64,000 nucleotides of DNA, taken from contig NZ_CP096659.1 of assembly GCF_023238205.1 (NCBI RefSeq), positions 1,426,001-1,490,000 of the forward strand, given 5' to 3'. The stretch is from Halorussus limi (GTDB lineage: Archaea; Halobacteriota; Halobacteria; Halobacteriales; Haladaptataceae). The position numbers were made by a program, and so were the translations under genes. Numbering within the stretch: position 1 is the first letter of the stretch; every line of letters starts with the position of its first letter. This document shows positions 15,411 to 29,574 of the stretch, one piece after another. Under the pieces are notes generated by a model. That model was not told where the DNA came from, did no database searches, and saw only the letters and a program-made list of their open reading frames with translations.

Positions 15411-17068
15411 CCCACGTTGCAAGCGCGCCGCACGAACTCAAGGCCAACCTCAATTACACTGAGTACGGACTCTCGCCGTACTGGGCCGTCTCGAATCTCC
15501 TGATTCGCGAGTACGACGGATACGCCTCGGACCTTCAGTTCGAAATCGGCGGCGAGACGTGGGACGTAGAGTTCGCCTATCAGTCCGGCGGTATCGCGCC
15601 ACGCCTACAGGATGATGTCGGTGGTGAAACGCTCTACGAGCCGAAAATCAACGTCCGCGGCGACGGAGAGCGGAAGGCCGACTTCCACATCCGACCGCGG
15701 TACGAGGGAATGACAACTCCCGAGGGCTCGCGAATCAGTTCACCGTTCGACCGCGATTCGCTCCCCAACGAGGGTTATAACGTTCGGGTACAGGGAAGTA
15801 ATCTGGAACCACACGAGTACACTAAACTGCTTCCAGCAATCGTGCAGCGATTAGGTGCCGAGGTCAGTCAGCGAATTAACCCGGACTACTTCACGTCGGG
15901 CAACCTGCACGCCTCCTCGAACGTCGACGAGTACGAGCGGTACGTTCGACTCCGGCGCTCGATGAATCAGAAGGTCATCGGTACCAGCGGTATCCTGCAG
16001 AAACTCCACTTCCTCCTGCTCGACCAGGAAGGCGTCAAGTACTCCATCGACGTGGACAACGAGGACGTGGTCGGGAAGATGCACAAGATGCCGCTGGACC
16101 GGTCGGCGATTCGCGAGGTCCCGCTTGGCTCTCGCGGTAAGCAACTCAAGAGCTACTTGCTGAAGAACCCCGACTCCGTCGACGACACCGACCCGACCTA
16201 TCACCCGAAGTTCGGCGTTCTGTTCAAGAAGTCGCTAAACGGCGAGAACACGATTCGATGGAGCGAGGTCGACGCTCTGACTCGGGAACTCCACGAGAGC
16301 ATCGTCAACTTGCTGTACTGGAGCGGTGTGCCGACCGACCCCGACCATACGACGTTCGTGCCCGACGACCACTTTGCGGCAACCGCGTATGAGGAGGACG
16401 AGAACTCCACAGTTCGGTTGTTCGACGATCCGACGCCTGACCTCGAGGCCAGTCAGGAGGCGATGCTCGTTCGCCAACTCCGAGAACTCACCGACGCGGA
16501 CATGGAACACCTGCGGGCGATGACCGACGGTGGTCAGCGTCACTACGACGCGGTCATCGAAGAGGCCGACACCTCAGTCTCGACGCTTTACCGCACACTC
16601 AAGCGTTGCGATGCACTCCTCAAGTCCGACAACGGCGTGGTGAAGTGGCGCTCGAAGAAGATCCGGCAGGAAGTCGCCGCGGTGTTCGAGCGCGTCGAGG
16701 AGACCGTCGAGGCCGCGGCCGACCAGGCCGCGCGACTGCTCGGGATGGACCCACAGCAGTTGAAGGAGAAAGGCTCGGCCTTCCAAGCGTGGCTGAACCG
16801 CTACGGTGCCGAAGTCCTCGACGACGGTACCGAGCCTCGAAGCAGAGTCCACATCAAGATCACGTCGGTCCTCTCGCGGTTCCGCTCGGGGTCGGGCGAG
16901 TACATCGCGAAGGTCTTGGAGTATCTCGAAATCGTGTGGTCGAAAGCCGGGTTCGACGCCTCGCTACACGGCGCAGTCATCGAATACAACACGGGCAACG
17001 GCTACGAGCGGTTCCGGTACGGCTCGAAGAAACACCAGTCGCTGATGGAGAGTAGCGCGACCCGGTAG
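15407..17068 (+). CDS. Large winged-helix protein, DUF7845-like; candidate replication or maintenance protein
   Basis: The protein has 553 residues. The first 330 residues match a family common on haloarchaeal plasmids and proviruses that I recall as DUF7845 (number from memory): an N-terminal HELKANLNYTEYGLSPYWA segment and a central HPKFGVLFKKSLNGENTIRW block. Residues 350-430 look like a winged helix (VRQLRELTDADMEHLRAM then VSTLYRTLKRCDALL). The C-terminus is helical. It is the last and largest gene of the coupled operon and is followed by a 606-base stretch full of dyads, the arrangement of a replication initiator beside its origin. No Orc1/Cdc6 or rolling-circle Rep is seen elsewhere in the element. 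Confidence 0.65.
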   Translation: MTHVASAPHELKANLNYTEYGLSPYWAVSNLLIREYDGYASDLQFEIGGETWDVEFAYQSGGIAPRLQDDVGGETLYEPKINVRGDGERKADFHIRPRYEGMTTPEGSRISSPFDRDSLPNEGYNVRVQGSNLEPHEYTKLLPAIVQRLGAEVSQRINPDYFTSGNLHASSNVDEYERYVRLRRSMNQKVIGTSGILQKLHFLLLDQEGVKYSIDVDNEDVVGKMHKMPLDRSAIREVPLGSRGKQLKSYLLKNPDSVDDTDPTYHPKFGVLFKKSLNGENTIRWSEVDALTRELHESIVNLLYWSGVPTDPDHTTFVPDDHFAATAYEEDENSTVRLFDDPTPDLEASQEAMLVRQLRELTDADMEHLRAMTDGGQRHYDAVIEEADTSVSTLYRTLKRCDALLKSDNGVVKWRSKKIRQEVAAVFERVEETVEAAADQAARLLGMDPQQLKEKGSAFQAWLNRYGAEVLDDGTEPRSRVHIKITSVLSRFRSGSGEYIAKVLEYLEIVWSKAGFDASLHGAVIEYNTGNGYERFRYGSKKHQSLMESSATR

Positions 17069-17674
17069 CGCGCGACTGGATAGAGACATCTCTATCGTTC
17101 GCTGATTCTCCCCGGAACTCGTTTCCTCAAGCCTCAGTCGCTTACAACTGGGAAATTAGGCGAATTGGTGGGTTCATCGAACCGGTCTGGCGCGCGGTCG
17201 AAACCGGCGATGATCGATAGGTTCGGCATATTCTGCCGTGATAGCACGAGGTCGCGAGCCGCGCGAGACGGCGTTTGTTCCCGGCGAGCGGGAACATCCC
17301 CTTAGAGGGTGTGCCTAAGGGCACCCATCGAAAAAAGTACCCACCAGCTCCGCAAATTCAGCGGAACAGCGGAAATCGAGGTGGAGCGAGGAGAAGGAAA
17401 ACAGAGTGTGTCGAGTTGGAAGGACCAATCGTGCAGTCGCGCGCGGACGCGGTAGGCCGCGCTCGCCGGGCGCGTTCCAATGGTGTGCCCCCGCCCGTGG
17501 GGGGTTGTACTACTCGAATCGTAACACGCGCGTGCGTCTGGTGATAGGAAATTTTCACTTCGGCCGGATGCGGCCGCCGACCGACCACCTCGAACCAGTC
17601 CACGTGGGACTGTCGCTCGACTTGAACTCAGTCAAAACAGTCTTCGTCACCTGTTGGAGTAGGAGTCCCCCGAG
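17069..17674. other. Gene-free, dyad-rich stretch; possible origin region
   Basis: No convincing gene is present. Four strong inverted repeats are: GATAGAGA-CA-TCTCTATC (17079-17096, 11 bases after the stop); GTTCCCG-GCGAG-CGGGAAC (17277-17295); CCCTTAG with CTAAGGG (17299-17305 and 17315-17321), nested with GGGTG/CACCC; and CCCCC-GCCCGT-GGGGG (17488-17503). A short GTTCCAATGG precedes the last G/C string, loosely recalling haloarchaeal origin boxes. A run of six A's follows at 17330-17335. This could be an origin, a terminator cluster or both. Confidence 0.4.
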
Positions 17675-18229
17675 TCAGGTGGTATCGAGGTCGAAGCAGT
17701 CCCGGCACGGGCGGTAGTGGGTCTCGATAGTCTTGCGCTCGACACGGCGGAAGTCGCCGGACTGGTCGCATAGCGGACCGTCAGGAGTCGGCGCGTGCAT
17801 CACGTCGGTCGACGAATGCTGGACGAGGACCTCGCTCGTGAGCGACCCGAGTGCGGGCACGGTCGGCTTGACGACAGGGTCGAACACGGACGGTTCGGTC
17901 GGGCCGATTTCACAGGGGTCTGTCGCTGAATTCGTGCGAAATTCGACGGGACTCTCTGGCTGTTGGGCGAGGAACTCGAGAATCGATTCGTAGCACGACC
18001 GGCAGGGCTCAAGGCCACTTCGGCGGACCGTCTCGAGGTCGGCGGCCTGCCAGTCGGTGTCGGCCGACCCGGCTCGACATGTGGCCGTGGGCTCGTCGGG
18101 GTCGGCGGTCGGGTCGATACGATGGAAGACCGAGCGGCCGGGTTTGGCGACGACGCGGTCCTGAAGCGCGACACGGACGTTCGAGAACTGACTCAGCAAG
18201 CCGTCGCCGAAGACAGCGTCGCTACTCAT
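17675..18229 (-). CDS. Unknown cysteine-containing protein downstream of AbrB gene
   Basis: The protein has 184 residues. It has two similar halves: each has an arginine/cysteine unit (CRAGS...CRSCYES near residues 51-80; CDQSG...CRPCRDCFD near 153-180). This suggests an internal duplication with two metal sites. Its start overlaps the AbrB-like stop by 8 bases (18222-18229), so it is the last gene of a small minus-strand operon. No family is recognised; a haloarchaeal plasmid origin is likely. Confidence 0.6.
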   Translation of the reverse strand: MSSDAVFGDGLLSQFSNVRVALQDRVVAKPGRSVFHRIDPTADPDEPTATCRAGSADTDWQAADLETVRRSGLEPCRSCYESILEFLAQQPESPVEFRTNSATDPCEIGPTEPSVFDPVVKPTVPALGSLTSEVLVQHSSTDVMHAPTPDGPLCDQSGDFRRVERKTIETHYRPCRDCFDLDTT

Positions 18230-18419
18230 ACGGACTCAAGCCGTCGGCGGGACGGATGGTGATCGCGTCGTCACCTTGGTCGTAGGTGAACAGGAGCTGG
18301 TCGCCGATTTCGATGTCGAGGGTCTCGGTGAGGTCCTGCGGGATAGTGACCTGCGTACAACCCGAGCCGTGAATCGCCTTGCGAGTGTCGGCGAACACGG
18401 TGACGCTATCGTTACTCAT
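18222..18419 (-). CDS. AbrB/MazE-family DNA-binding protein
   Basis: The protein has 65 residues. It has the swapped-hairpin AbrB fold signature: GCTQVTIPQDLTETLDIEIGDQLLFTYDQ, followed by ITIRPADGL. Such proteins dimerise and bind DNA, as antitoxins or as chromatin-like regulators. No toxin of PIN or MazF type is adjacent; the next gene is the unknown cysteine protein, which could in principle be the partner. The ATG at 18419 lies inside the end of the preceding zinc-finger gene (overlap ATGAGTAA). Confidence 0.8.
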   Translation of the reverse strand: MSNDSVTVFADTRKAIHGSGCTQVTIPQDLTETLDIEIGDQLLFTYDQGDDAITIRPADGLSPYE

Positions 18420-18564
18420 TGCTGGCCTCCTGGCCGCAGCAGGCTCGATCGGCCTCGCAATCGTTGAATCGGCAGGTCGGGCAGAATTCGAGGCCGCCGT
18501 TCGAGCGGGTACAGGACGGGCACTCACACTCGCGGTTTCGTCCGGCGGGTGCGCGCGAACTCAT
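18412..18564 (-). CDS. 50-residue zinc-finger protein
   Basis: This gene is short but well supported. Its ATG overlaps the stop of the upstream 24-codon frame, and its stop overlaps the AbrB-like start. Eight cysteines in 31 residues fall as CECPSC (13-18), CPTC (28-31), C36 and CC (42-43), enough for two zinc sites. Such small CPxCG-type proteins are frequent in haloarchaea. Function is unknown; operon position suggests a co-regulator of the AbrB protein. Confidence 0.65.
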   Translation of the reverse strand: MSSRAPAGRNRECECPSCTRSNGGLEFCPTCRFNDCEADRACCGQEASNE

Positions 18565-18635
18565 GAGCGGTCACCGTCGGTCTTGTAGGTCGTTGCTGGT
18601 ATCTCGGTGTCAAGTTGGTAGTTCTCCATTGCCAT
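18561..18635 (-). CDS. 24-residue leading reading frame of the AbrB operon
   Basis: ATG at 18635 encodes MAMENYQLDTEIPATTYKTD and four more residues. Its TGA overlaps the ATG of the zinc-finger gene. It begins about 20-30 bases downstream of a TATA-like tract (AACTTTTTTACT, 18655-18666 on the minus strand), as a leaderless first gene would. It may be a small protein or a leader peptide that couples translation. Confidence 0.45.
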   Translation of the reverse strand: MAMENYQLDTEIPATTYKTDGDRS

Positions 18636-18654
18636 CCTGTCGAGAAACCGTGGT

Positions 18655-18666
18655 TAGTAAAAAAGT
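18655..18666 (-). promoter_or_regulatory. TATA element of the AbrB operon
   Basis: The minus strand reads AACTTTTTTACT, 20-31 bases upstream of the first start codon at 18635, the normal spacing for leaderless haloarchaeal transcripts. Confidence 0.45.
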
Positions 18667-18743
18667 TACTACTGGCGCGAAAACTAACCCTTCCTTTGCC
18701 GACAGGACACGCCAGCCACTAGATCACCGTTCAGTAGGCGTGC

Positions 18744-19712
18744 CTATTCTTCGACGATACGGTCAGCGATATCGGTCCAAACTACGCGATATTCCTCGAG
18801 CCCAGCCTTTCCGATTCCGGCTGTGATAAGATCCGACCAGTGAGGCTCGAACGCTTTCTCAAAGACGAATCCCGACTCACTATATGTGCGAATCATCTTC
18901 ACCCTTTCATCCAACGACGGGGGGTTCCAACTTACCACGGTCTCTATACTAATACTGCTCTGCTCGTCCAGAGAGGTGCTGTAGTCTCGGAGTTTGAATA
19001 TATAGGTGTCGTCTGCCAGATAGTAGCCGACTTCGCTATGGAGGCCAGTAGCCGTGTATTCCACGTAGTTATCGGTAACGCGGAGGCTGTCCCAACCAAG
19101 ATCAACCTTTCGAGGATGCTTGATGCTCTGCTCAATAGCCTTGGCCTGGCGTTCAGAAAGATCAGTTCGAGATAGTGGGTCTCCGTTCACGTCTTGAATA
19201 GACAGCCCCCATTCGTCCAGTGTTTCTGTAACTTCTGGATCATCAAATGGTGTGTTTGAGTCGTCGTACAATTCATCGACGATGTCCGTGAACTGGTTGT
19301 CGAGAGTATCCTCCTCAATCTCGTCAGGCGATGTGTGGCGAAACCGTTCTTGGAAGTCTTCAGTATCCGCAAGAAGTGATTTGATTGAGTCAATACGGTC
19401 GTCATTGCTGTACTTCTGTAAGAGTCGCGCCAGTTGGTCACGTTGTTCTGCCGAAAGGGAGAGGTCTGTAAGTTTATAAGATATCTTCTCTCTCTCATCG
19501 TCGGTTTCTGTCGAGTTCTCGGTATACAGTAGCCCTACATCGTAAAGCGCCCAGCAGAGGTCGTGACTTATTGCGGTCTTTGTTCCGAACCCCATCTTCT
19601 GGAATATCCTATCCATGACGGGGCGGGTCTTGAGATTAATCGGATGTCCGGAACCAGGTTTCGCCGTTACGTGGTACCCTGGCTGGGACTGAGAATCTTT
19701 CACGTATGGCAT
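18744..19712 (-). CDS. Unknown 322-residue cargo protein
   Basis: I do not recognise this protein. From the ATG at 19712 it begins MPYVKDSQSQPGYHVTAKPG. Residues 30-75 are basic and helical and look like a DNA-binding or winged-helix segment (TRPVMDRIFQKMGFGTKTAISHDLCWALYDVGLL). The rest is acidic and helical until about residue 200, then beta-rich (YVEYTATGLHSEVGYYLADDTYIFKLRDY). GC content is clearly below that of the flanking operons, which marks it as cargo. An in-frame upstream ATG at 19772 would add 20 residues. Confidence 0.6.
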   Translation of the reverse strand: MPYVKDSQSQPGYHVTAKPGSGHPINLKTRPVMDRIFQKMGFGTKTAISHDLCWALYDVGLLYTENSTETDDEREKISYKLTDLSLSAEQRDQLARLLQKYSNDDRIDSIKSLLADTEDFQERFRHTSPDEIEEDTLDNQFTDIVDELYDDSNTPFDDPEVTETLDEWGLSIQDVNGDPLSRTDLSERQAKAIEQSIKHPRKVDLGWDSLRVTDNYVEYTATGLHSEVGYYLADDTYIFKLRDYSTSLDEQSSISIETVVSWNPPSLDERVKMIRTYSESGFVFEKAFEPHWSDLITAGIGKAGLEEYRVVWTDIADRIVEE

Positions 19713-19823
19713 ATGCGAATGGGACTTCGTATGTAACTTGTATCCTCTGATGGGCCAGCAACCGAACCTCACCGTACGAACCGAAGAGTGTCAACAGAGT
19801 TAGTGACACAGCAGTGGATTTAC

Positions 19824-20096
19824 TCACGGACCAACTGACCAACTGGTTTCGGCCTTGACCGAGAGTTCGTCGGTGTCCAGGATATCAGCGATCTCCTCGG
19901 GCGTGACGTTGCCCTGTTTGACGGCGCGCTCCATCAACTCCTCGACCGCGCCGGTTGGGACGGCGGTCGTATCGCCGGCCATTTTGAGGTAGTAGTCGGC
20001 GGCTTGGTCGATGGCTTTGCTCTTGGTGTTCTGGCCGGTGGCTTCGAGGAGGTTCTCCAGACGACGCTCGCGCGAATCGGTCATTCTGAGACGCAT
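19824..20096 (-). CDS. Small ribbon-helix-helix-like regulator
   Basis: The protein has 90 residues if started at MRLRMTDSRERRL (ATG at 20096; a GTG 12 bases upstream is possible). The first 45 residues, RERRLENLLEATGQNTKSKAIDQAADYYL, fit the haloarchaeal ribbon-helix-helix type. The C-terminal half contains a second helical unit (VTPEEIADILDTDELSV) like a small helix-turn-helix. A TATA-like TTTAAATAC lies about 55 bases upstream. Repeats of TTGCACAC around its start may be its own operator. Confidence 0.6.
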   Translation of the reverse strand: MRLRMTDSRERRLENLLEATGQNTKSKAIDQAADYYLKMAGDTTAVPTGAVEELMERAVKQGNVTPEEIADILDTDELSVKAETSWSVGP

Positions 20097-20097
20097 G

Positions 20098-20262
20098 AAA
20101 TTGCACACGCACCCCCGAACGGTAGTTTTCTTCGGTCACTAAACCGGTTTCAGTATTTAAACGAACGCAGGTAAGGCGTGATCTGGCCGGGTGAGCGAGC
20201 GCGGTCGCGGTCGATCTCGAGGCGTTTTGCACACATCGTGAGCGCCCGGCGTGTGCAATTTT
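20098..20262. repeat. Inverted TTGCACAC repeats flanking the regulator promoter
   Basis: AAATTGCACACGC at 20098-20110 is the exact reverse complement of GCGTGTGCAATTT at 20250-20262. A third partial copy, TTGCACAC, lies at 20228-20235. The first copy overlaps the start of the ribbon-helix-helix gene, so an autoregulatory operator or looping site is plausible. No gene is evident from 20110 to 20520. Confidence 0.5.
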
Positions 20263-20524
20263 CGGCGTCGATTTCTCTGGGCGTGTGACCATGGGGGGTC
20301 AACAAAGAGAGGCGGTATAGTTTCTGAGGAACCCTTCCTTAGAAATCTATCCTACATATTCCCCACCTCTATTTGTAACAGGTTGAATATGGATACGGTA
20401 GAAGAAACCGCCGGTCAAACCTTGGTGCCCCGTTATCGCACGGGGGATAAACGGGGAAACACACTGTTCGTACAACCGGTACGTTAATAACTTATTAGCG
20501 TGTACGTGTAGGTGTGAAGTGGCG

Positions 20525-20566
20525 CGGGAGACAATGATCCCTCACTGAAGGGGTATGAGCCTCCCG
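20525..20566 (+). other. Nested stem-loop, possibly a transposon-end or omega-RNA relic
   Basis: CGGGAG (20525-20530) pairs with CTCCCG (20561-20566) and encloses CCCT/AGGG (20539-20542 and 20549-20552). The layout resembles the structured right ends of haloarchaeal IS1341-type elements, but no transposase or tnpB gene accompanies it. It lies 17 bases beyond the stop of the DUF3800 gene and could instead be a terminator. Confidence 0.35.
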
Positions 20567-20582
20567 TTGCTACTCTGAAGTT

Positions 20583-21284
20583 CTACCTGAAGAAGCGAAA
20601 GTCGTTGAGTGTACTCGCTGCCGTTTCACAGTCTGTTTTCAGTAAATTCCGTCTCCACGAGTACGCCGCAAGGTCTGAAAGCTGGATTCCGGGTGTTCCT
20701 CGGCTGTCTCGAGTTTCAAACGAAACAGGCGGTAGTTCGTCCGACGCGAGGTTAGAAACTTCTCGAAGACGCTGAGCAGGGTTCTGCCAAACCTCCGCAT
20801 CTAGATAGACGCGGACTTGATCAAAGTCACCCGTTTCTAATCGATCTTCTTGACGTAGTGGCGAAAGGATAGACGCCAAAGAGATAGTTTTCAGTGTTTC
20901 TCCTGTCTGCTGAGGGCCAACTAAGTCTTCGATAGCGTCCGTACCCGCATCCGAGTTCACCTCATGGAGTGTATACCGCATCGGTTTGCTCACTTGCCAA
21001 GGGTAGTTTGTTTGTTGAATCGACGAATCATCGTGGATGCCGCTGCGGAGATACGCGAAGAGCGTGTCCAATACTGGTGGCGGTGTCGACGCTCCCTTCA
21101 ATTCCCCAATCGAATCCTTACCGAGCTCACTCCCTTCAATGGTGGACATGAGGCGGTCTTTTGTCGGCATTAGAACCTCATTTGGATTTGGTCGTGCGGA
21201 GACTACCCAACATCCAGCTACCGCGTAACAGCGATCTGTCTGCGGCTCCCCGCTCTCATCAACAAAGATGTAGAGATAAGACAT
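20583..21284 (-). CDS. DUF3800-family protein
   Basis: The protein has 233 residues. The family landmarks are visible: YLYIFVDESG at residues 4-12 (with Asp9-Glu10), ELKG at 61-64, an aspartate in RVYLDAEVW, and QLSDLAAYSWRR near the C-terminus. DUF3800 has an RNase H-like fold with acidic residues expected to bind metal, and the family is frequent in phage and defence islands; a nuclease role is inferred, not proven. It shares strand with the Ubl operon upstream but is 506 bases away, so it is probably a separate unit. Confidence 0.82.
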   Translation of the reverse strand: MSYLYIFVDESGEPQTDRCYAVAGCWVVSARPNPNEVLMPTKDRLMSTIEGSELGKDSIGELKGASTPPPVLDTLFAYLRSGIHDDSSIQQTNYPWQVSKPMRYTLHEVNSDAGTDAIEDLVGPQQTGETLKTISLASILSPLRQEDRLETGDFDQVRVYLDAEVWQNPAQRLREVSNLASDELPPVSFETRDSRGTPGIQLSDLAAYSWRRNLLKTDCETAASTLNDFRFFR

Positions 21285-21790
21285 GCAAATTATTTACACT
21301 CTGATACAGGGTCCTTCGTCGGCGTAGTTGACTCCAATCTCGAATCACTTGATTTGTCACCGACCACATCCATGCTCTAACTTAGAGTGAGAGTCAGTTG
21401 GGATAAAAAAGCACCCGTTCGCGCGCGCATGAGGGCGGATAGACCGTTTCGGAGGGACTGCAGGATGGTGGGTGGCTACGTGGGTAGTCAGTGGCAGTAG
21501 GGTTGCTGGTGGTCAGGTTGGTGGCTGCGGTCTGGAGGTCACAAGGGTTACGAGAGTCGTATGTTCTGACCGAAGCGGACTACGAAGCTGTGCAGGAGAT
21601 AGAGGGTAGGTTGGAGAACGAATTCCGGCGAAGTGAACGACTGTGTTTTCTATCGGCGGCGGTGAGCAGCGCGTGACATGTACAATTCTGGACGAGCGCT
21701 CACGTTCGCGTGTAATCACTGGACCGCGTGGCTAGAAGGGTAGTAGTGAAAATTCAATCTCCTTTGTCAGACAGTAACTGAAACGTGGAA
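21285..21790. other. Gene-free stretch between DUF3800 and the JAMM-E1 gene
   Basis: I find no convincing gene in these 506 bases. A plus-strand open frame (21491-21676) has a plausible helical stretch (YVLTEADYEAVQEIEGRLENE) but a low-complexity beginning, and may be a decayed fragment. The block around 21450-21540 is G/T-rich with many GGT repeats. Confidence 0.4.
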
Positions 21791-23215
21791 TCAAAACGAT
21801 AACAAAGAAAGTTGGTGAACAGATGGTGACCACTGCCCTTTTTGACAAACGCAGTCGTCAGCTCGATCGGTCGCATACCGCTGGAGATCACACGCCCAGA
21901 GGTTGAAGACCACCATTTCATCCCAGATATTCTCCTGATTCAGGAGGTAGGCGACCGCTTGCACAGCCCCCATAGTAGCTGCCATGGTCGTCATAAAGAC
22001 GTTACTCGGCTCTGGCCCCTCGTCTCGACGGTAGCCATCCTTTACTTCGCGGTCAACCAACTCTTTTGGCATATTCTCTTCACGGATTTTGCCGGGGTCG
22101 AGCACATCAAGGCACCACAGGCAAGGACCACCATTTACAACGTGCCGGGCGTCCGCGAAAAGGTCTAGCACCAGACCGTCATTCGCGGTCGGACGCGTTC
22201 CTACGTCGATGTACGGAATACCGTAGAGTACCGAGAGTTTGTTCAGGTAGTCCCGAGGGGTGTGTCGGTCAGTACAACCGAAGATGACGTCGCAGTCAAG
22301 CAACTCCTCGTCGTAGCTACCAGTCGTCACGTCGTCCTGAATCGTTTCGACCTCCGCAGTCGCCGTCCGACCGAGATGGTCTTCTAGGACCTTCGTTTTC
22401 GCTGTTCCTTCCCGCGCTTGTTCGAGTGTTAGGCTATAGAGCCTGTTTGCATTTGAGATTTCTGCCGTATCTGGATCGGCTAACAGTAGCGACCCAATTC
22501 CAGCTCGCGCACACTGAATGGCTGTTGCACTGCCAGTTCCCCCGAGTCCGACGATACCGACTTTTGCCGAGGTGAGACGTGCTTGTCCGAGACGGTCGAT
22601 GAGCTGCAATTGCCGGTCGGCAATCTCCAACGGGTCGACCTCGTTAGTAGTCGACGTTTCGCCCATTCCATCGCCAACGTCGCCAGTGAGGTCTCGTGGA
22701 ACAGCGTCGTCGAGATTTCGAACGGACCGAATTGGCCGTGATCCACAGCAATTCACCACATCAACCTCGTGTTGGTCGTCCGCATAGTCTATACCGGTCC
22801 AGAGCTTTCCTGTGACATCGTTTCCGTGGATGACGAGGCTCCCAAATGCGCCTTGGGCTGAGGACTCAACGAAGTCTCGAAGCCAAGCCTCGTGCATCAG
22901 TTCGTCGGCATACGAGAATCCCGGCGGGCCATCGGGATGACTGTGTACAAAGAACGGAACTCTGTCGGTCTGGAAAGACTCACCCATCACCTTCGACTTG
23001 TATCTCGTCGTCGGGCGGAGACGCCGCTGCTCTTGGATGTTCCAACGGTTCTCGTAGTTCGGTGGGGCTACTTCTTGGTCTACGACCAGTCGGACTCCAG
23101 ACGCCGTTTCGACAGGGCGGGTGAGTACGAACCCACCATCTTCCAGTGGAGCAGACTGGTTACAACGGTCTCGTAGTGAGTCCCAGACGTCTCCCAGAAT
23201 AGTGACTCGAATCAT
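21791..23215 (-). CDS. JAMM deubiquitinase-like / E1-like activating enzyme fusion
   Basis: The protein has 474 residues. Residues 1-140 are a JAB/JAMM metalloprotease: Glu25 in APLEDGGFVL, then HSHP (91-94), Ser101 and Asp104, the HxH-P-(6)-SxxD zinc site. Residues 190-440 are a ThiF/E1 adenylation domain: GLGGTGS (223-229), a SNANR arginine, then CTDRHTPRDYLN and a probable zinc site with CLWC (365-368) and CVC (455-457). The E1 half would adenylate and transfer a ubiquitin-like protein; the JAMM half would process it or remove it. It is the last gene of Ubl-E2-JAMM/E1, joined to the E2 gene by TGATG. Fusion of both activities in one chain is known for some bacterial operons of this class. 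Confidence 0.88.
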   Translation of the reverse strand: MIRVTILGDVWDSLRDRCNQSAPLEDGGFVLTRPVETASGVRLVVDQEVAPPNYENRWNIQEQRRLRPTTRYKSKVMGESFQTDRVPFFVHSHPDGPPGFSYADELMHEAWLRDFVESSAQGAFGSLVIHGNDVTGKLWTGIDYADDQHEVDVVNCCGSRPIRSVRNLDDAVPRDLTGDVGDGMGETSTTNEVDPLEIADRQLQLIDRLGQARLTSAKVGIVGLGGTGSATAIQCARAGIGSLLLADPDTAEISNANRLYSLTLEQAREGTAKTKVLEDHLGRTATAEVETIQDDVTTGSYDEELLDCDVIFGCTDRHTPRDYLNKLSVLYGIPYIDVGTRPTANDGLVLDLFADARHVVNGGPCLWCLDVLDPGKIREENMPKELVDREVKDGYRRDEGPEPSNVFMTTMAATMGAVQAVAYLLNQENIWDEMVVFNLWACDLQRYATDRADDCVCQKGQWSPSVHQLSLLSF

Positions 23216-23628
23216 CAACTGAGCTCCCAGAGTCGTTGTTCGATGAACGCCACGTGATCGACGAGATCATTATAGGCCGGGTCCCAATCGGGGTCGCTGC
23301 TATCGCCACGGTGCCACGAGAACCGCCGCCATTCTCGTCCTGCAAACCTCTTCGTGCAGTCCGCTTTCTCGGGAAGCTCACCGTTCTGGAGCGTTACTTC
23401 GGTTTCGGTCCAGAACATGTCGAGAGCCGTGCGCGGATAATGCCGTGGACCGTGGATATTGACCAGAAGGTCGGTGATCTCCGGGTCGAACTGCTCGGGA
23501 AGCTCGAAGTCTCTGAAGATAACGTGGGCCGTGGTCGAGGACTGCTTGATGTCAATGTCGAAACCGTCGGCTTCCAGCGTCTCGATGTCGGCGACGAGTA
23601 CGTCGGGGAGGTCGTTATCGCCCGGCAT
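23215..23628 (-). CDS. E2-like conjugating protein (Prok-E2_E type)
   Basis: The protein has 137 residues. It fits the prokaryotic E2 family E pattern: LLVNIHGPRHYPRTALDMFW (55-73), then CTKRFAGREWRRFSWHRG (91-108), an aspartate/tryptophan segment, and a C-terminal helix DLVDHVAFIEQRLWEL. Cys91 is the only cysteine in the protein and so the only candidate for a thioester; His106 and Trp100 are the conserved partners. The start at 23628 lies inside the end of the Ubl gene (14-base overlap). The N-terminal extension to 23706 is rejected because it duplicates the Ubl gene in another frame. Confidence 0.85.
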   Translation of the reverse strand: MPGDNDLPDVLVADIETLEADGFDIDIKQSSTTAHVIFRDFELPEQFDPEITDLLVNIHGPRHYPRTALDMFWTETEVTLQNGELPEKADCTKRFAGREWRRFSWHRGDSSDPDWDPAYNDLVDHVAFIEQRLWELS

Positions 23629-23953
23629 TGCGGTCCTTCTCGACGGCTCGGAAGAACAGCGTTCTCTCGGTGGCGGTCCGGTCGATGACCTTATTGAGGG
23701 AGACATCGGTTCCCTCCGTGTCGCCCTCGTTCTCCAACTGGAAGACGTCGAAGCTACTGGGGGTACGCCCTGTCGCCGCGACGATCTCCTTCACCGTCGG
23801 CTTCGTTTTCTCGATGTCGACCCGCCGCCGGTTCATCTTGATCTGCGCGAGCGGCCGCTCTCCTGCTTTGGACCGATTTTGACCGCCGTCAGTCCGCAGT
23901 TGCTTACTCGTCTGATCGTCTGTGCTAACGTTCGCGTGGTTTCCTGCATTCAT
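23615..23953 (-). CDS. Ubiquitin-like protein of the conjugation operon
   Basis: The protein has 112 residues. A polar, probably disordered N-terminus of about 34 residues precedes a beta-grasp domain (36-104). The pattern is a first beta hairpin (LAQIKMNRRRVDIEKTKPT), a helix (VKEIVAATG), then FDVFQLENEG, an acidic loop and a final strand TLFFRAV. This agrees with the prokaryotic multiubiquitin/Ubl group found beside E2 and E1 genes. The tail ends NAGR and lacks a terminal di-glycine, so maturation or a non-standard C-terminus is implied. It is the first gene of the operon. Confidence 0.75.
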   Translation of the reverse strand: MNAGNHANVSTDDQTSKQLRTDGGQNRSKAGERPLAQIKMNRRRVDIEKTKPTVKEIVAATGRTPSSFDVFQLENEGDTEGTDVSLNKVIDRTATERTLFFRAVEKDRNAGR

Positions 23954-23962
23954 AGTAATGCA

Positions 23963-23983
23963 CGCACTATCTCCCGTAGTGCG
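23963..23983. promoter_or_regulatory. Inverted repeat at the start of the Ubl operon
   Basis: CGCACTA (23963-23969) and TAGTGCG (23977-23983) form a perfect dyad with a 7-base spacer, ending 10 bases before the Ubl start codon. It could be an operator near the transcription start or a hairpin in a short leader. No clear TATA box is seen at the usual distance; the closest candidate is a TGGATATGGATA tract about 55-65 bases upstream. Confidence 0.4.
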
Positions 23984-24136
23984 GGGGCGCACCCAATGCC
24001 CTGACGACCGTATCCATATCCACAAATTCCTACCTGGATACACATCCAGATCTCGGAAGCGGACCGTAGTCGCCACTCACCCTAACCTCCGCTGGTTCAG
24101 GCTTCAGGTACGTAGATTCACTTTGCCCCGGGAAAT

Positions 24137-24153
24137 CCCGGCTTAATGCCGGG
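24137..24153 (+). other. Hairpin resembling a TnpB omega-RNA 3' end
   Basis: CCCGGC and GCCGGG arms with loop TTAAT, preceded by GGAAAT and followed by GTGGACC. Right ends of IS1341-type elements in haloarchaea have this layout, from memory. There is no tnpB gene upstream on the same strand, so if the match holds it is a solo relic. Confidence 0.35.
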
Positions 24154-24591
24154 GTGGACCTAGCCCGGTGGGCGCGAATCGTTTCAGACCCGCGTTGACT
24201 CAAAGTTTATCCGAAAGGGTAATAAGAGTTTCGTTCCGTGGTAATAGTTCACGCGCCCTCTATATGCTATACTTGGTTTGGGTAGCTAATGGCCCTAATG
24301 TTCACGCTTTACTAACGCGTCGGATTACACTTTCACTCCGGTCTCCAAACCCCTTTATATGCAAAAACTGGTTAAGGTAAGCCAAAAACAGCAGATATGC
24401 ACTTAAAGTATAAAAGAGGCTGATTCACTTTCACTTCACTTCAAGTAGATTGGCTGATGATAGCGATATGTCTAAGAAGGCTGAATTGCCGGTAGGAACA
24501 ATCAGTCCCACCGGGCTAGGTCCAACTGGACCCTCAATGGCATTGGTTATAAAGATAGGGGAAATGGTCTTTCTTTCCTATAGACCCACTG

Positions 24592-24607
24592 TCTATCTAT
24601 CTATCTA
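24592..24607 (+). repeat. (TCTA)4 microsatellite
   Basis: Four perfect TCTA units followed by TTTA, 79 bases upstream of the rhomboid-like gene. The track may be slippage-prone and lies where a promoter is expected. Confidence 0.7.
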
Positions 24608-24686
24608 TTTATAGAGATTCCCCATATCAGTATCCTTTTCACCTTCTTGGAAAATTACTTGATATTCTATTTATAATAGCATTGTA

Positions 24687-25583
24687 ATGGAGCGACTTGA
24701 AGAAGCTTACGTCCAAAATGAATCCATGCGTCAAAAGGCCTCTTCTCTCTTCTCCTTTGAAAGACAGGTATTCGATATCTTCGCCATCTCCGCAGTCGCG
24801 GTCCTCCTCTTCCTCGTAACAAAAACCCACACGTCGTTCCAGAACCAACTTGTCCTTTTCTACGACAATCCGGCACCCCACGCCTTCTACACGACACACT
24901 TTGTCCACGAATCGGCAGCGCACCTCCGCGGGAACCTCATAAGCTACCTCGTGGTCGTACCCCTTACCTACCTCATCTCACTCAGAGCTGGCCGCCACCG
25001 TGAGTTTCGCCTTGGGTTCCTCGCTATCCTCTTCGTCCTCCCACCGATCATCTCTCTTGTTAGTCTGCTCGGTCTCGACCTCGTCATCCAGACGATCTTC
25101 GGCTTCGACCCGAACGTCCGCTCCAGTCGTGGCTTCTCCGCACTCGCTGGCGCGTTCGTCGGGATGCTAATGGTCGCGGTGGCCGACCTCTTCCGGGATA
25201 TTGCCGACCGCGAGGGGTCGCTTTGGCCGGTCATCGGGCTGATGTTCTGGTACGGGATAGCGGTCGCGTTCTGGGGTGTGTTCCAGTATCTGGTGAGTCT
25301 GCTGACCGTGTTGCTGGTCCTTCTTCCGACGGCATACGCAGTCTGGCTCGTCAAGAAGGTCGAGGGGCAGTACAATATCGTGGACGGGATGCAAGCAGGT
25401 GGCTGGCTACGCGGGCGGCCCGTGACGGTTGGTCTGCTCGGGGTCGGGTTCTTCGCCACGGTCTGGGGGACGCAAGGGCTATTGGCGTTTCCGTGGTTCG
25501 AGGGTGGGACGAATACGTTGTCGCACTTTGTGGGTATCCTTAGCGGAATCTCTCTAATGATATTCTCTAGACCGCTTGTTTAA
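24687..25583 (+). CDS. Rhomboid-like intramembrane protease
   Basis: The protein has 298 residues with about seven hydrophobic helices. An N-terminal cytosolic segment (1-27) precedes helix 1. The HESAAHLRGNLISYL segment (74-88) supplies the conserved His and Asn83 of rhomboid helix 2. RGFSALAGAFVGM has the serine of the GxSG motif as Ser151, with GFSA replacing GFSG. SHFVGILSGI near the C-terminus supplies the catalytic His280. Serine-histidine rhomboids cleave membrane proteins. The first 300 bases are AT-richer than the rest. It faces away from the Ubl operon and is convergent with the next gene. Confidence 0.75.
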   Translation: MERLEEAYVQNESMRQKASSLFSFERQVFDIFAISAVAVLLFLVTKTHTSFQNQLVLFYDNPAPHAFYTTHFVHESAAHLRGNLISYLVVVPLTYLISLRAGRHREFRLGFLAILFVLPPIISLVSLLGLDLVIQTIFGFDPNVRSSRGFSALAGAFVGMLMVAVADLFRDIADREGSLWPVIGLMFWYGIAVAFWGVFQYLVSLLTVLLVLLPTAYAVWLVKKVEGQYNIVDGMQAGGWLRGRPVTVGLLGVGFFATVWGTQGLLAFPWFEGGTNTLSHFVGILSGISLMIFSRPLV

Positions 25584-25586
25584 TTT

Positions 25587-26717
25587 TTATTCCCCATTTG
25601 AAACGCTAGTTCTGTAAGATAACTTTTCTTCTGACTTTCTAAGCAGAACGATTACAAGCATAAAGAAAGAACCTATGAAGTAGACCATTCCCCAGAGAAG
25701 TCCTGCTACTAATAACTCTCCTGTGTATCCTGTTACCATATTCGGAAATCCAATTGTGAAAATTAAAACGAGAGTTGCCGAACTTAATGCGATAAAAATC
25801 GACCGCACTATCAGGTTCTGGAGCTTTTCCATTTCTATTGAATAGGCCCTCCAAGTAAAGGAGAAAAGCGAGAGAATCAAGAAGAACGTGAGTAGTCTCG
25901 CTTCAATGGGGCCGTTCCTTAGTGTCTTGAGGATTGGTGGGTAGTTAGCGACAGCATAAAGAGTTAAAAACAGAACTCCGACCTCAATCCGGAAGTCTGC
26001 GGTAATATATGGATAAACATCCGCAAAGGTGTAATTCCTCTGTAGGTAGAAACCCAGCCACATTGTCAATCCTAATAGACTTAGACTTGCTAATTGAGCA
26101 TGGTAATAGATGAAAGAAAACACGAAAATGAGTGCTGAAGCCGTAAATGTAACTACCCCATTCCTTAGGGAATTATAGCACTTCTCCCAATTTTCTTTCG
26201 CCTCAGAGAGTATATCTTCATTATTCTCGATGATGGTTTTATACTCCCTGAGTACTTGTCGTCGCTCTTCAGAATCAGTGTCCGGGTCAGAATGTTTTGA
26301 GAGGACGTTCCTCCCTTCAATACTCGGCTGAAGAGTAGAGGGATTCATCACCTTATAGGCAAAAACAGGAACACCAACAAACAGGTTAGATATTGAGAAA
26401 GAAACCAGAAGAAAAACAGAAATAGAGAGTAGGATGGCAATCAACGTGGCTTGGGATTCACCGATGAACCCGATAGCAGAATGAATCTGATTACTGAGCC
26501 GATTTATTTGTAAAATATTGTTCGGGAGAGAAACTCCTCCACTAGTTGATGCTAGTGCCGAAATAACTCCGATTGTAACACTAATTGCAGTCAAGACAAT
26601 GCGAAGTAGCCGACTTGCCTGGTTTTCAAATCTTCTGTGTGCCTCAATTTGATAGTCTACACGCCGTTTAACTTCTTCATAAAGAAAGTCCCAGTCACCA
26701 TCCGACTTCAATTTCAT
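25587..26717 (-). CDS. AT-rich multi-pass membrane protein, unknown
   Basis: The protein has 376 residues and no family I can name with confidence. It has a soluble N-terminus (1-38), two helices (39-60 and 88-125), a long charged loop (126-170), then about six more helices. The N-terminal helix plus membrane pair resembles SLATT-type effectors of defence systems, but this is only a resemblance. Codon use and GC content (around 40 percent) differ sharply from the rest of the window, indicating recent transfer. It ends 3 bases from the rhomboid-like stop, convergent. Confidence 0.65.
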   Translation of the reverse strand: MKLKSDGDWDFLYEEVKRRVDYQIEAHRRFENQASRLLRIVLTAISVTIGVISALASTSGGVSLPNNILQINRLSNQIHSAIGFIGESQATLIAILLSISVFLLVSFSISNLFVGVPVFAYKVMNPSTLQPSIEGRNVLSKHSDPDTDSEERRQVLREYKTIIENNEDILSEAKENWEKCYNSLRNGVVTFTASALIFVFSFIYYHAQLASLSLLGLTMWLGFYLQRNYTFADVYPYITADFRIEVGVLFLTLYAVANYPPILKTLRNGPIEARLLTFFLILSLFSFTWRAYSIEMEKLQNLIVRSIFIALSSATLVLIFTIGFPNMVTGYTGELLVAGLLWGMVYFIGSFFMLVIVLLRKSEEKLSYRTSVSNGE

Positions 26718-26924
26718 GTGATAAACCTAAGATAGTAATTTTGTCTGATTGGGATTAGTCTTGTGATTTTACAGAGTATGCCAGAGAGCCAAAACACTCT
26801 AACTTGAGCAATGGAAGGGGTATAAATCATCAACTTAGAGCAGGGATACTTCTGTCTCGCTCAATTCCGTCTGTAACAAGATATCAAGCTAGACTGGCTC
26901 TTTATTTCTCAGTTGGACATCGGT
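26718..26924. other. Short AT-rich spacer
   Basis: This spacer is AT-rich and holds the promoter of the membrane-protein gene (TATA-like tracts near 26735-26770). No gene is seen. Confidence 0.4.
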
Positions 26925-27179
26925 CTACTTTCCGTCCAACTCTCCGGAAGAAAGCTCTTCGTCGAGATATCGGCGTCCGAGTTCTGTGAGCGAGTAGTAC
27001 CCGTCGCCGACTCCTTCAAGCAGTCCCTGTTCGGTAAGTACGCGGCAACGCTCTCCGGCGTAATTCCGGTGAGTATCGATATTTCTCCCGATTACGGCCG
27101 GTGGGACCTCTCCGGCGTCTCGGACGTACTCCAAGATAGCGTCATCGACGGGCACCATCCAGTCCGCACGCTCACGCAT
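26925..27179 (-). CDS. PhiH1-repressor-like winged-helix regulator
   Basis: The protein has 84 residues from the ATG at 27179. The order MRERADWMVPVDDAILEYVRDAG, VIGRNIDTHRNYAGERCRVLTEQGLL and YSLTELGRRYLDEEL is that of the haloarchaeal phage PhiH1 repressor family: a winged helix with a recognition helix around residues 33-48. Such proteins repress lysogeny or plasmid functions. It is divergent from the right-arm operon, and twin palindromes lie 54-89 bases upstream of its start, where it could control both directions. Confidence 0.82.
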   Translation of the reverse strand: MRERADWMVPVDDAILEYVRDAGEVPPAVIGRNIDTHRNYAGERCRVLTEQGLLEGVGDGYYSLTELGRRYLDEELSSGELDGK

Positions 27180-27232
27180 GGTACAGAAAGCGAATATCAG
27201 GACCATAGTACCCCTACAACTAAATCAGAAAC

Positions 27233-27268
27233 TGTGCGTACGCAAATCCAGAACTTTGCATATGCAAA
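27233..27268. promoter_or_regulatory. Twin palindromic operators in the divergent regulator region
   Basis: TTTGCATATGCAAA (27255-27268) is a perfect 14-base palindrome. TGTGCGTACGCAAA (27233-27246) is the same dyad with one mismatch. Their centres are 22 bases apart, two helical turns, so two dimers could bind on one DNA face. They lie between the repressor gene and the right-arm operon, the natural place for the repressor to act. Confidence 0.6.
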
Positions 27269-27275
27269 AGATATA

Positions 27276-27515
27276 ATGCCTATCAACATATCGGACTCTA
27301 TTACGGAAGCTACACGCGGACCCGTCACTCCCCGATGGGTCCATCTCGAAAACGAAGCGGGCCGGTGCTTGGGACACCGGGTCCGCGATAGCTCCCGTGG
27401 AGTAGGCACGGAAGCCATGTTCGCAATCGCTACGCGGGGTCTTGAAAGCCCCGAACGACCGACGGAATCGCACGTCAACCGAACGCCGACCCAACCCGAG
27501 GTGACCGCGGCATGA
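27276..27515 (+). CDS. Unknown 79-residue protein, first gene of right-arm operon
   Basis: ATG at 27276 follows the perfect palindrome by 7 bases, and the stop overlaps the PadR start as ATGA, which supports a real coupled gene. Composition is polar with no clear motif (PINISDSITEATRGP at the start, NRTPTQPEVTAA at the end). The frame remains open upstream, but that part is antisense to the repressor gene and unlikely to be used. Confidence 0.45.
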   Translation: MPINISDSITEATRGPVTPRWVHLENEAGRCLGHRVRDSSRGVGTEAMFAIATRGLESPERPTESHVNRTPTQPEVTAA

Positions 27516-27865
27516 GCGAAACCGCGGCGGTCGGCTTCCCCGAGTTCCACGCCTTCGAGCGCGACCTCCTGTTCGCAGTCTGCGCACTCGAACGCGACGG
27601 CGACGCGCCCCACGGCCTCGCCATCAAGTCCTACCTCGAAGCCGAGTACGACGAGGAAATCAACCACTCGCGACTCTACCAAAATCTCGACGCGCTAGTT
27701 GAGCGCGGCCTCCTCCGGAAGGGCGCGAAGGACGACCGTACGAACGAGTACATCACCACCGACTCCGGGCGACTCCTGCTCGAACGCCGCGCGAAGCGCC
27801 GCGCCGACCAACTCGGTCTCGACCTGCGCGACTCGACCGCGGAAAATGGTGGTGATTTGGAATGA
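27512..27865 (+). CDS. PadR-family transcriptional regulator
   Basis: The protein has 117 residues. The winged helix of the PadR type is visible: FERDLLFAVCALERDGDAPHGLAIKSYLE, then INHSRLYQNLDALVERGLL and DDRTNEYITTDSGRLLLERR. PadR proteins bind promoter dyads as dimers through a C-terminal helix, here short (residues 88-110). It is translationally coupled to the preceding small gene. In haloarchaeal mobile elements PadR genes are common next to the integrase operon and probably regulate it. Confidence 0.85.
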   Translation: MSETAAVGFPEFHAFERDLLFAVCALERDGDAPHGLAIKSYLEAEYDEEINHSRLYQNLDALVERGLLRKGAKDDRTNEYITTDSGRLLLERRAKRRADQLGLDLRDSTAENGGDLE

Positions 27866-27954
27866 TTGGCTCACCCCCGCGCCTGCCTTTAGTTTCACTT
27901 TCACTCAACTATAGAACTCAACTTTTTACACACGAGTCCATCATTCCGTCTCGG

Positions 27955-28014
27955 ATGATTCGGAAACAAATCTCCCACGACGAAACTGTCGCCTCGCAGG
28001 AGGTGCGTGCCTGA
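27955..28014 (+). CDS. 19-residue coupled reading frame
   Basis: ATG at 27955 encodes a short basic peptide (MIRKQISHDETVASQEVRA) whose TGA overlaps the next ATG as TGATG. A TATA-like CTTTTTACA (27922-27930) lies 25 bases upstream, so this is the likely first codon of a leaderless transcript. It may serve mainly to couple translation of the next gene. Confidence 0.4.
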   Translation: MIRKQISHDETVASQEVRA

Positions 28015-28637
28015 TGCAGTGCCCCGAGTGCGGTACGGCGATTCTCGGTGTCGCAACCCGCGGCCCCAACACGCACGTCTTCGACCCCTGCGGCTGTTCG
28101 GTGCCCGTCCACGACATCGCCGCCCTCGACCGCGGCCGCGGCCTCGTGACCGACGGCGGCGAAGAACAGTACGGGGCAGCCACGCGATTCAAGGCGAACA
28201 ACGCCGACACCGAGACGATTCTCCTCGGACGCTACGACGACGCTACGAAGCTCAGCGTCCCGGAAGTCCACGACTGCGCGCCAGTTCGCGCCCGTCGCTA
28301 CTACGAACCGGTGACCGTGGTCAGCTTCCCGTACACGATGTCGCGAGAGGAAGCCATCGAGTGGCTTGACGACCACCGCCATCACCCCGACCTCGCCGAC
28401 TACGACTGGAGCGCCCACGACCAACAGGACCTCCTTGACGTGATCGTGGACAATCGAAGCTCGTACCGGATGCAACTCTCTGACTTCGAGCGCCAACTCG
28501 AAGGCGTCCGCGCGGTCGGCGAGCGAACCAAGCAAGAACTCGAAGAGATTCGGGAGGCGATGACCGACGCGATGCACAACGGGCCTCCCGTCGAAGTCAA
28601 CTGCCTCGACGCGCCCGAGGAGGTCGATTCGGCATGA
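28014..28637 (+). CDS. Unknown protein with N-terminal zinc ribbon
   Basis: The protein has 207 residues. MQCPECGTAILG and DPCGCSVPVHD in the first 35 residues form a zinc ribbon. The middle is beta-rich (YYEPVTVVSFPYTMSREEAIEWL), and residues 145-195 form a charged coiled coil (LSDFERQLEGVRAVGERTKQELEEI). The architecture suggests a DNA-binding or scaffold protein. It is coupled to the next gene by ATGA. No family is recognised. Confidence 0.6.
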   Translation: MQCPECGTAILGVATRGPNTHVFDPCGCSVPVHDIAALDRGRGLVTDGGEEQYGAATRFKANNADTETILLGRYDDATKLSVPEVHDCAPVRARRYYEPVTVVSFPYTMSREEAIEWLDDHRHHPDLADYDWSAHDQQDLLDVIVDNRSSYRMQLSDFERQLEGVRAVGERTKQELEEIREAMTDAMHNGPPVEVNCLDAPEEVDSA

Positions 28638-28960
28638 GCGCCGACCGAACTCGCGCCGGCCGTGGCCTCGAAACCCGGACGTTCCGGGTCGGTCCGGAGC
28701 GGACGGTGGCCTACGGCCCGGCGGCGAGCGGTCGCGAAGAGTGGGCGCTCCGGTTCACCGCCGACTCCGGCGAGCGCGTCGCAGTTCGCCTTGACGAAGA
28801 TGCGATGTACGCGCTCTGGACCGAGGTCCACAACGTGCCGTGGCCTCGCGACGAGACTGAGCGCGGTGACCTCCGCCGCGAGGTCGCGGCCCGCGCCGAA
28901 CGCGCCGATGCCGAGACGCTTCGCCAAGTCCTCGACGTTCTCGGAGGTGACCAGTTGTGA
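28634..28960 (+). CDS. Unknown small protein of the right-arm operon
   Basis: The protein has 108 residues, is acidic and mixed alpha-beta. It has a strand-rich front (TFRVGPERTVAYGPAASG; EEWALRFTADSG) and a helical back rich in Arg, Ala and Glu. The start overlaps the previous stop (ATGA), and its stop overlaps the next GTG. Similar proteins accompany integrases in haloarchaeal elements as I recall; function is unknown. Confidence 0.55.
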   Translation: MSADRTRAGRGLETRTFRVGPERTVAYGPAASGREEWALRFTADSGERVAVRLDEDAMYALWTEVHNVPWPRDETERGDLRREVAARAERADAETLRQVLDVLGGDQL

Positions 28961-29574
28961 CCGACCTCGACTGGCCCGCTGGCTTCGACCGGACCGACGC
29001 AGTCCGCCAGACCACGAACGACCGCTTCGAGATTTCGCTCTCGAAGGCGTTCGACGAACTCGAAACCGAATTGGACCGTCTCGGTGTCAAGGACGGTACC
29101 GACGGCGCACCCGGCTACCGGTACAGCTTCGACGCGCCCCAGCGCCAGACCGACCAGCGACCCTACGCGCGAGCGAACCCCGACGACCCCGGCTTCGTCC
29201 TGCAGTGGACGATGGACGGCAACGACTACGCGGTGGCCTGCGACCGCTACTCGCGGCTTCGAGACAACGTCCGGACCGTCGGCCTCTACGTCCGCGAGAA
29301 GCGCAAGATGGAGGAGCGACCTGTCGAGACCGGCGAGAGCGAGTTCGCCAACGCACGACTCCCGTCCGGCAACGAGAACGCCGACGCGGTGGTCGCACAC
29401 GAACCGCCCCACGAGGTGTTGGGCGTCGCTCGAGACGCCGCTCCCGAAGTCGTTCGCGGTGCGGCCCGCCAACTGAAGAAGAAGTACCACCCGGATGCGG
29501 GCGGCGACGAGGAGCGGTTCAAACGCGTCGTAGACGCCGAGAACGCCATGCTCGACGGGCGGGGTGAGCGATGA
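28957..29574 (+). CDS. J-domain-containing protein of the right-arm operon
   Basis: The protein has 205 residues. The C-terminal 60 residues are a J domain: HEVLGVARDAAPEVVRGAAR, then QLKKKYHPDAGGDEERFKRV with the HPD triad that stimulates DnaK ATPase. The N-terminal 120 residues are of unknown fold (YRYSFDAPQRQTDQRPYAR). The protein may recruit the host chaperone for plasmid or virus replication, as some phage J proteins do; that is inference. The GTG start overlaps the previous stop. Confidence 0.72.
   Translation: MTDLDWPAGFDRTDAVRQTTNDRFEISLSKAFDELETELDRLGVKDGTDGAPGYRYSFDAPQRQTDQRPYARANPDDPGFVLQWTMDGNDYAVACDRYSRLRDNVRTVGLYVREKRKMEERPVETGESEFANARLPSGNENADAVVAHEPPHEVLGVARDAAPEVVRGAARQLKKKYHPDAGGDEERFKRVVDAENAMLDGRGER

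What the first reader, a model, noticed from the sequence alone, without database searches (positions are those of the whole stretch)
21791..23953. Compact Ubl-E2-(JAMM-E1) conjugation operon in an archaeal mobile element
Three overlapping minus-strand genes encode, in order, a beta-grasp ubiquitin-like protein, a Prok-E2_E-type E2 with a single cysteine (Cys91), and a protein that joins a JAMM metalloprotease to an E1-like adenylating enzyme. Seen directly: HSHP with SxxD spacing, GLGGTGS, the E2 FAGREWRRFSWH block and gene overlaps. Established: bacterial operons with Ubl, E2, E1 and JAB genes (for example Bil-type) conjugate Ubl to phage proteins as defence, whereas the SAMP systems of haloarchaea use an E1 without an E2. 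A Ubl-E2-E1 set in a haloarchaeal cargo zone is therefore unexpected and may be a defence module.
Basis: partly seen in the sequence, partly recalled or inferred. Interest (0 to 1): 0.87.

Follow-up and report, generated by a model that had tools for sequence, protein, structure and literature searches.

The report
Archaeal Bub-type ubiquitin-like conjugation operon
A salt-loving archaeon carries, on a genomic island inserted next to a tRNA gene, a three-gene ubiquitin-like tagging system of the kind recently named Bub in bacteria; it probably attaches the tag through a serine rather than the usual cysteine, and may help defend the cell against viruses.

Summary
In detail: three overlapping minus-strand genes encode a small beta-grasp Ubl, a Prok-E2_E E2-like protein and a JAMM-E1 fusion. 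The interpretation needs correcting. (1) The class is known. It is operon type 6e of Iyer et al. 2006 (Ubl, Cys-less E2/RWD-like protein, JAB-E1), now called Bub; the closest solved structures are Citrobacter BubB and BubCD. It is not Bil-like. (2) Cys91 is not conserved: it occurs in 2 of 15 Bub-type E2s compared. Ser104 in the F-S-W-H block is invariant, and a related archaeal E2 clade has Cys in exactly that column, so Ser104 is the likely acceptor. (3) The Ubl tail ...NAG-R carries a family-wide Gly followed by a removable tail, which fits maturation by the fused JAMM domain. (4) The set is rare but not unique in haloarchaea: E2-family matches in 9 of 391 genomes, some on plasmids and already annotated 'E2/UBC family protein'. 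(5) It lies in a low-GC island of about 17 kb between direct repeats at tRNA-Pro, with an integrase. Only the trio is shared with the closest archaeal relative, so the three genes look like the complete unit. Antiviral function is inference. New archaeal member of a known kind.

The parts
23615..23953 (-). Ubl (BubA-like), single beta-grasp domain (about residues 38-111) behind a ~35-residue low-confidence N-terminal extension; tail ...RNAG-R
   Evidence: Multi_ubiq only sub-threshold, but best structure matches are Citrobacter multi-ubiquitin protein and BubA(155-229)
23618..23623 (-). codons of Gly111 (predicted mature C-terminus) and the trailing Arg112 predicted to be removed
   Evidence: a Gly at this place in every relative inspected, followed by nothing, a short tail, or a fused E2 domain; crystallised BubA(155-229) ends at the equivalent Gly
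23215..23628 (-). E2-like protein (BubB-like, Prok-E2_E), 137 aa
   Evidence: Pfam PF14462 3.2e-21; PDB BubB 2e-8 by profile; model vs 9eae_C Z 13.3, 123 residues aligned
23317..23319 (-). Ser104 codon, proposed Ubl acceptor (S-W-H motif)
   Evidence: Ser in 15 of 15 Ser-type E2s; Cys at the same column in the sister archaeal clade
23356..23358 (-).
   Evidence: Cys in window and Chloroflexota L018 only
21791..23215 (-). JAMM metalloprotease - E1 adenylating enzyme fusion (BubCD-like), 474 aa
22904..22945 (-). JAMM zinc motif H91-S-H93-P...S101-x-x-D104
21851..22618 (-). E1/ThiF adenylation domain: GLGGTGS, D247/D249, N255, R258, K273, D316, zinc-type cysteines C365/C368/C455/C457, invariant Tyr395
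13618..13690 (+). tRNA-Pro(TGG), insertion site of the island
   Evidence: homology to eight congeneric genomes ends at about 13691
13667..30888 (.). integrated element: direct repeats 13667-13899 and 30657-30888 flank about 17.0 kb; GC falls to 0.50-0.57 inside
29571..30596 (+). tyrosine-type integrase next to the right repeat
   Evidence: phrog_1 integrase 2.8e-22; Pfam Phage_integrase 3.6e-5, just below its cut-off

Best explanation
This is an archaeal Bub-type Ubl conjugation operon (BubA, BubB, BubCD). The JAMM half of the fusion removes the last residue of the Ubl to expose Gly111; the E1 half adenylates Gly111 with ATP; the activated Ubl passes to Ser104 of the E2-like protein as an oxyester and from there to a target protein; JAMM can remove it again. 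The operon is cargo of an integrated mobile element and most likely serves antiviral defence. Shown here: gene set, order, homology, residue conservation, fold similarity to BubA and BubB, island setting. Inferred: processing, ester chemistry, target conjugation, defence.
For: E2 matches PDB BubB (2e-8; model Z 13.3 vs 9eae_C, next E2s about 8); JAMM-E1 matches BubCD (8e-16), complete JAMM motif. Ubl model's best hits are Citrobacter multi-ubiquitin and BubA. Same gene order in G070, Rhizobium and Bradyrhizobium and in the 6e operons of PMC1779556. Ser104 and His106 15/15 in Ser-type E2s, with Cys at the Ser104 column in most E2s of the archaeal sister clade. No Cys conserved across all the E1s; the zinc-type tetrad is present in most and the canonical E1 Cys position holds Ser/Ala. 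Conserved Gly with removable tail, matching the end of the crystallised BubA construct. E1 tree places window and G070 with a Chloroflexota protein beside the bacterial Bub E1s (0.998-0.999). Only the trio is shared with G070. Island on tRNA-Pro.
Against: Multi_ubiq score below Pfam's cut-off; both structure models are moderate (mean pLDDT 64-65). DUF6527, common in bacterial Bub operons, was not found anywhere in this genome or in G070. No Bub-associated regulator is visible beside the operon and no island neighbour is a clear known defence gene. The oxyester chemistry of Bub is my recollection of Ye et al. 2026, whose text is not held.
Confidence: 0.75

Rival explanations
1. Canonical thioester cascade: the E2 uses Cys91.
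For: Cys91 is the only Cys of the E2 and is shared with the Chloroflexota relative L018.
Against: G070, the closest archaeal relative, and 12 of the other 13 Bub-type E2s compared lack it, the Citrobacter BubB homologue included; it lies 13 residues before the invariant S-x-H; Cys-type relatives carry Cys at the Ser104 column, not at 91.
Confidence: 0.08
2. The E2-like protein is a catalytically dead, RWD-like Ubl-binding scaffold, and the E1 modifies targets directly or the system does something other than conjugation (the 2006 reading for this class).
For: Iyer et al. 2006 called this E2 class inactive because it lacks the Cys (PMC1779556).
Against: Ser104 and His106 are invariant from bacteria to archaea and align with a Cys in the sister clade, which suggests catalysis; a Citrobacter BubCD-BubB complex has been solved.
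Confidence: 0.15
3. Function other than defence: housekeeping or stress-responsive protein modification or turnover, or maintenance of the element itself.
For: No virus-challenge data; island neighbours are not clearly defence genes; haloarchaea already run SAMP conjugation tied to proteolysis (PMC4895103 abstract).
Against: Patchy distribution, location in a mobile element, and Bub operons described as putative immune pathways, 219 of 544 next to damage-responsive immune regulators (PMC13373217).
Confidence: 0.35

Closest known systems
Bub (bacterial ubiquitination-like) operons, Citrobacter BubA/BubB/BubCD (PDB 9ea4, 9ea8, 9eae, 9eav); type 6e operons of Iyer et al. 2006
   Same: Multi-ubiquitin-type Ubl with C-terminal Gly, Prok-E2_E protein with S-x-H and no conserved Cys, JAMM fused N-terminally to E1, overlapping genes, mobile location.
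   Different: Archaeal host; one Ubl domain and not fused to the E2 (Citrobacter has a multi-Ubl-E2 fusion); no DUF6527; no CapW/CapH-P/CapK-S neighbour; one-residue Ubl tail.
Rhizobium phaseoli plasmid operon L024
   Same: Separate single Ubl (88 aa), E2/UBC and ThiF genes in the same order.
   Different: Followed by DUF6527 and preceded by HTH plus ImmA/IrrE genes; Ubl already ends in Gly.
Haloarchaeal Cys-type operons (L020, L022, L045, L046, L049, L050)
   Same: Prok-E2_E-like E2 and JAB-E1 fusion in haloarchaea, with a Ubl gene where inspected (L020, L022).
   Different: Cys replaces Ser104 in the E2; separate E1 clade; several have a second E2-like gene without that Cys.
Bil (BilABCD) anti-phage system
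   Same: Ubl, E2, E1 and JAMM in one operon.
   Different: BilB uses a catalytic Cys in a CEHH motif, and E1 and JAMM are separate proteins (PMC11354881).
SAMP/UbaA/HvJAMM1 of Haloferax
   Same: Haloarchaeal Ubl, E1 and JAMM.
   Different: No E2; the window E1 scores 42 bits against the UbaA equivalog cut-off of 450.

Membership tests
Bub / type 6e operon | Prok-E2_E protein encoded between the Ubl and the E1 gene | tested here: met
   PF14462 75.8 bits, cut-off 25; gene order
Bub / type 6e operon | E2-like domain without the conserved Cys, with invariant S-x-H | tested here: met
   S104-W105-H106; Cys91 not conserved
Bub / type 6e operon | JAMM domain fused to the N-terminus of the E1 domain, zinc ligands intact | tested here: met
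Bub / type 6e operon | Beta-grasp Ubl with a C-terminal Gly | tested here: met
   best structural matches are multi-ubiquitin/BubA (Z 6.9-7.0), Gly111 conserved; caveat: Multi_ubiq 18.4 bits is under Pfam's cut-off, while relative L018 passes it at 31.5
Bub / type 6e operon | E1 groups with Bub E1s in a tree | tested here: met
   node supports 0.998-0.999 for window+G070+L018, 0.812 for joining the bacterial Bub E1s
Bub / type 6e operon | DUF6527 metal-binding protein (accessory, not in every 6e operon) | tested here: not met
   no match in G000 or G070; described as an additional gene of the class, not required (PMC1779556)
Bub / type 6e operon | Oxyester E1/E2 intermediates | not testable with these tools
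   needs biochemistry
Bil (BilABCD) | E2 with catalytic Cys in a CEHH motif; separate JAMM and E1 genes | tested here: not met
   JAMM fused to E1; only Cys not conserved
CBASS type II (Cap2/Cap3) | E2-E1 fused in one protein, with a CD-NTase gene | tested here: not met
   E2 is a separate gene; PADLOC E1-E2 models match only part of the E1 region; no CD-NTase among the island proteins scanned
SAMP system | UbaA-type E1 acting without an E2 | tested here: not met
   42 bits vs cut-off 450; an E2 gene is present

The most novel reading that the evidence does not exclude
Haloarchaea run two sister E2 chemistries, a Ser/oxyester one (this operon) and a Cys one, differing by a swap at a single column, driven by E1s without a conserved catalytic Cys. 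The E1 would then use the invariant Tyr395 or pass the Ubl straight from the adenylate to the E2. That would be a natural test bed for how thioester ubiquitination arose or was lost.
Probability: 0.3. Interest if true: 0.72.

Novelty: new member of a known kind. Interest (0 to 1): 0.5.

Why it matters
A 2010 survey reported that no archaeal E2-like protein had been detected (PMC2948915), and haloarchaeal Ubl research has centred on E2-less SAMP conjugation. A compact Bub-type cascade in a haloarchaeal island, with a Ser acceptor and Cys-type relatives in other haloarchaea, extends the class to archaea and gives a paired natural experiment on the E2 nucleophile. If it protects against viruses, it would be a ubiquitin-like immune pathway in archaea.

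Tried and rejected
Viral-contig scan with the E2: no relative. Genome-contig scan: one, the Chloroflexota MAG L018. Ubl by sequence against PDB: nothing significant. Idea that the canonical E1 Cys is replaced by a conserved Ser (E-P-S-N): rejected, relatives have Ala there. Idea that 24155-24524 is a MITE: rejected, single copy in the genome. Idea of a conserved fourth gene (DUF3800, membrane proteins): rejected, only the trio is shared with G070. No PADLOC hit for the E2 or Ubl. The two key Bub papers could not be read. Clean empty site: upstream homology of eight relatives ends at about 13691, but the sequence beyond the right repeat (to 36 kb) did not match them either, so neighbouring insertions or rearrangements are likely.

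Full report
OBSERVATION. The three minus-strand genes are as described: Ubl 23953-23615, E2 23628-23215 (14-nt overlap with the Ubl) and JAMM-E1 23215-21791 (one-base overlap, TGATG). Pfam gives Prok-E2_E 3.2e-21, ThiF 2.4e-31 and Prok-JAB 1.1e-5; Multi_ubiq is only 0.0026, under its cut-off. The G070 relative encodes the same trio in the same order, its JAMM-E1 at E = 1e-106 with 44% identity.

SETTING. GC drops from about 0.65 to 0.50-0.57 between 18 and 28 kb. tRNA-Pro lies at 13618-13690. A direct repeat starting in the 3' part of the tRNA (13667-13899 and 30657-30888; 81% over the first 52 nt, 93% over the next 184) brackets 17.0 kb. An integrase (29571-30596) sits just inside the right copy. 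In all eight congeneric genomes fetched, homology to the window runs up to the tRNA end (about 13691) and is then lost. This is an integrated element at tRNA-Pro. Its other genes (DUF7845, DUF488, DUF3800, PadR, a DnaJ-domain protein, two membrane proteins) include no clear defence system.

WHAT IT IS. The E2 profile matches Citrobacter BubB (9eae, 9eav; 2e-8), and the JAMM-E1 matches Citrobacter BubCD (8e-16). The E2 model, although of moderate confidence (mean pLDDT 64), aligns to BubB over 123 residues at Z 13.3, with eukaryotic E2s at 8 and below and Cap2's E2 domain at 7.1. The Ubl model (mean pLDDT 65, core mostly 70-89) has Citrobacter multi-ubiquitin and BubA among its best matches. 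Iyer et al. 2006 (PMC1779556) described this fifth operon type: JAB fused to the N-terminus of E1, a protein with one to three Ubl domains, and a Cys-lacking E2/RWD-like protein that may be a separate gene between them. Rhizobium phaseoli carries exactly Ubl, E2 and ThiF as separate genes, plus DUF6527. The later name Bub, and the statement that Bub operons are putative immune pathways often next to damage-responsive regulators, are in PMC13373217.

RESIDUES. In 15 Bub-type E2s (bacterial and archaeal) Ser104 and His106 are invariant; Cys91 is present only in the window and L018. A second archaeal set of operons has Cys in the Ser104 column (KYCIH, KWCIE, RWCVR and similar). The E1 tree, which uses no E2 data, separates the two sets: window, G070 and a Chloroflexota protein form a clade (0.998-0.999) beside bacterial Bub E1s, and the Cys-type archaeal E1s form another (0.999). 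The E1 keeps adenylation residues and, in most members, four zinc-type cysteines, but no Cys at the canonical E1 position; Tyr395 is invariant in all 24 E1s compared. The JAMM ligands are intact in all 14 Ser-type fusions. The alignment of Ser104 with Cys is by sequence; no residue-level superposition on a eukaryotic E2 was made.

UBL TAIL. The Ubl ends NAG-R; G070 ends NVG-C; Rhizobium TTEG with no tail; Bradyrhizobium TTEG plus eight residues; L018, Pseudomonas, Acinetobacter and the Citrobacter relative have the Gly followed directly by the fused E2. The crystallised BubA(155-229) ends at that Gly when mapped on a close Citrobacter homologue. This pattern fits removal of whatever follows the Gly by the partner JAMM domain (inference).

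DISTRIBUTION. Prok-E2_E matches 9 of 391 Halobacteria genomes (8 over the cut-off). Some lie on plasmids already annotated 'E2/UBC family protein'. Window and G070 share only the trio, so these three genes are the likely minimal unit. DUF6527 was not found in this genome or in G070.

MECHANISM. Most likely: JAMM trimming to Gly111, adenylation by E1, Ubl-O-Ser104 ester on the E2, transfer to targets, JAMM reversal; the wider role most likely antiviral. Sequence supports the parts and the residue choice; chemistry and function are inferred. That Bub works through oxyesters is my recollection of the Ye et al. 2026 abstract, which could not be read here (title cited).

VERDICT. Real, well delimited, and a new archaeal member of a known kind (Bub).

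Noticed in passing
L020 2318-5605 (= L047), L045 1700-5080, L050 4251-7434: Haloarchaeal Cys-type operons with two E2-like genes, one with Cys at the nucleophile column and one without it, before the JAB-E1 gene; L020 also has two Ubl genes. A UEV-like partner arrangement is possible.
   Followed up: partly
L011 9152-12002, L012 9189-12016, L013, L014, L015, L019: A second Ser-type haloarchaeal lineage, partly on plasmids (Halorarius, Halorubrum, Haloarcula), with an acidic, probably helical N-terminal region fused to Ubl-E2; separate E1 branch.
   Followed up: partly
window 22031-22033 (codon of Tyr395 of the JAMM-E1): Tyr395 in the segment after the CxxC pair is invariant in all 24 E1s compared, Ser- and Cys-type; a candidate catalytic residue.
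   Followed up: no
window 24155-24172 and 24507-24524: Perfect 18-bp inverted repeat 334 bp apart just upstream of the operon; the unit is single-copy in the genome and its left end folds into a strong hairpin.
   Followed up: partly
window 20583-21284: DUF3800 gene on the same strand 0.5 kb downstream of the operon; not shared with G070.
   Followed up: partly
L057 5566-8105 (G416, another class of the phylum): JAB-E1 gene flanked by two Cys-bearing E2-like ORFs outside Halobacteria.
   Followed up: no
window 14662-15177: DUF488 protein with a weak PADLOC match to a candidate defence family (PDC-M45C, 4.8e-7) on the same island.
   Followed up: no
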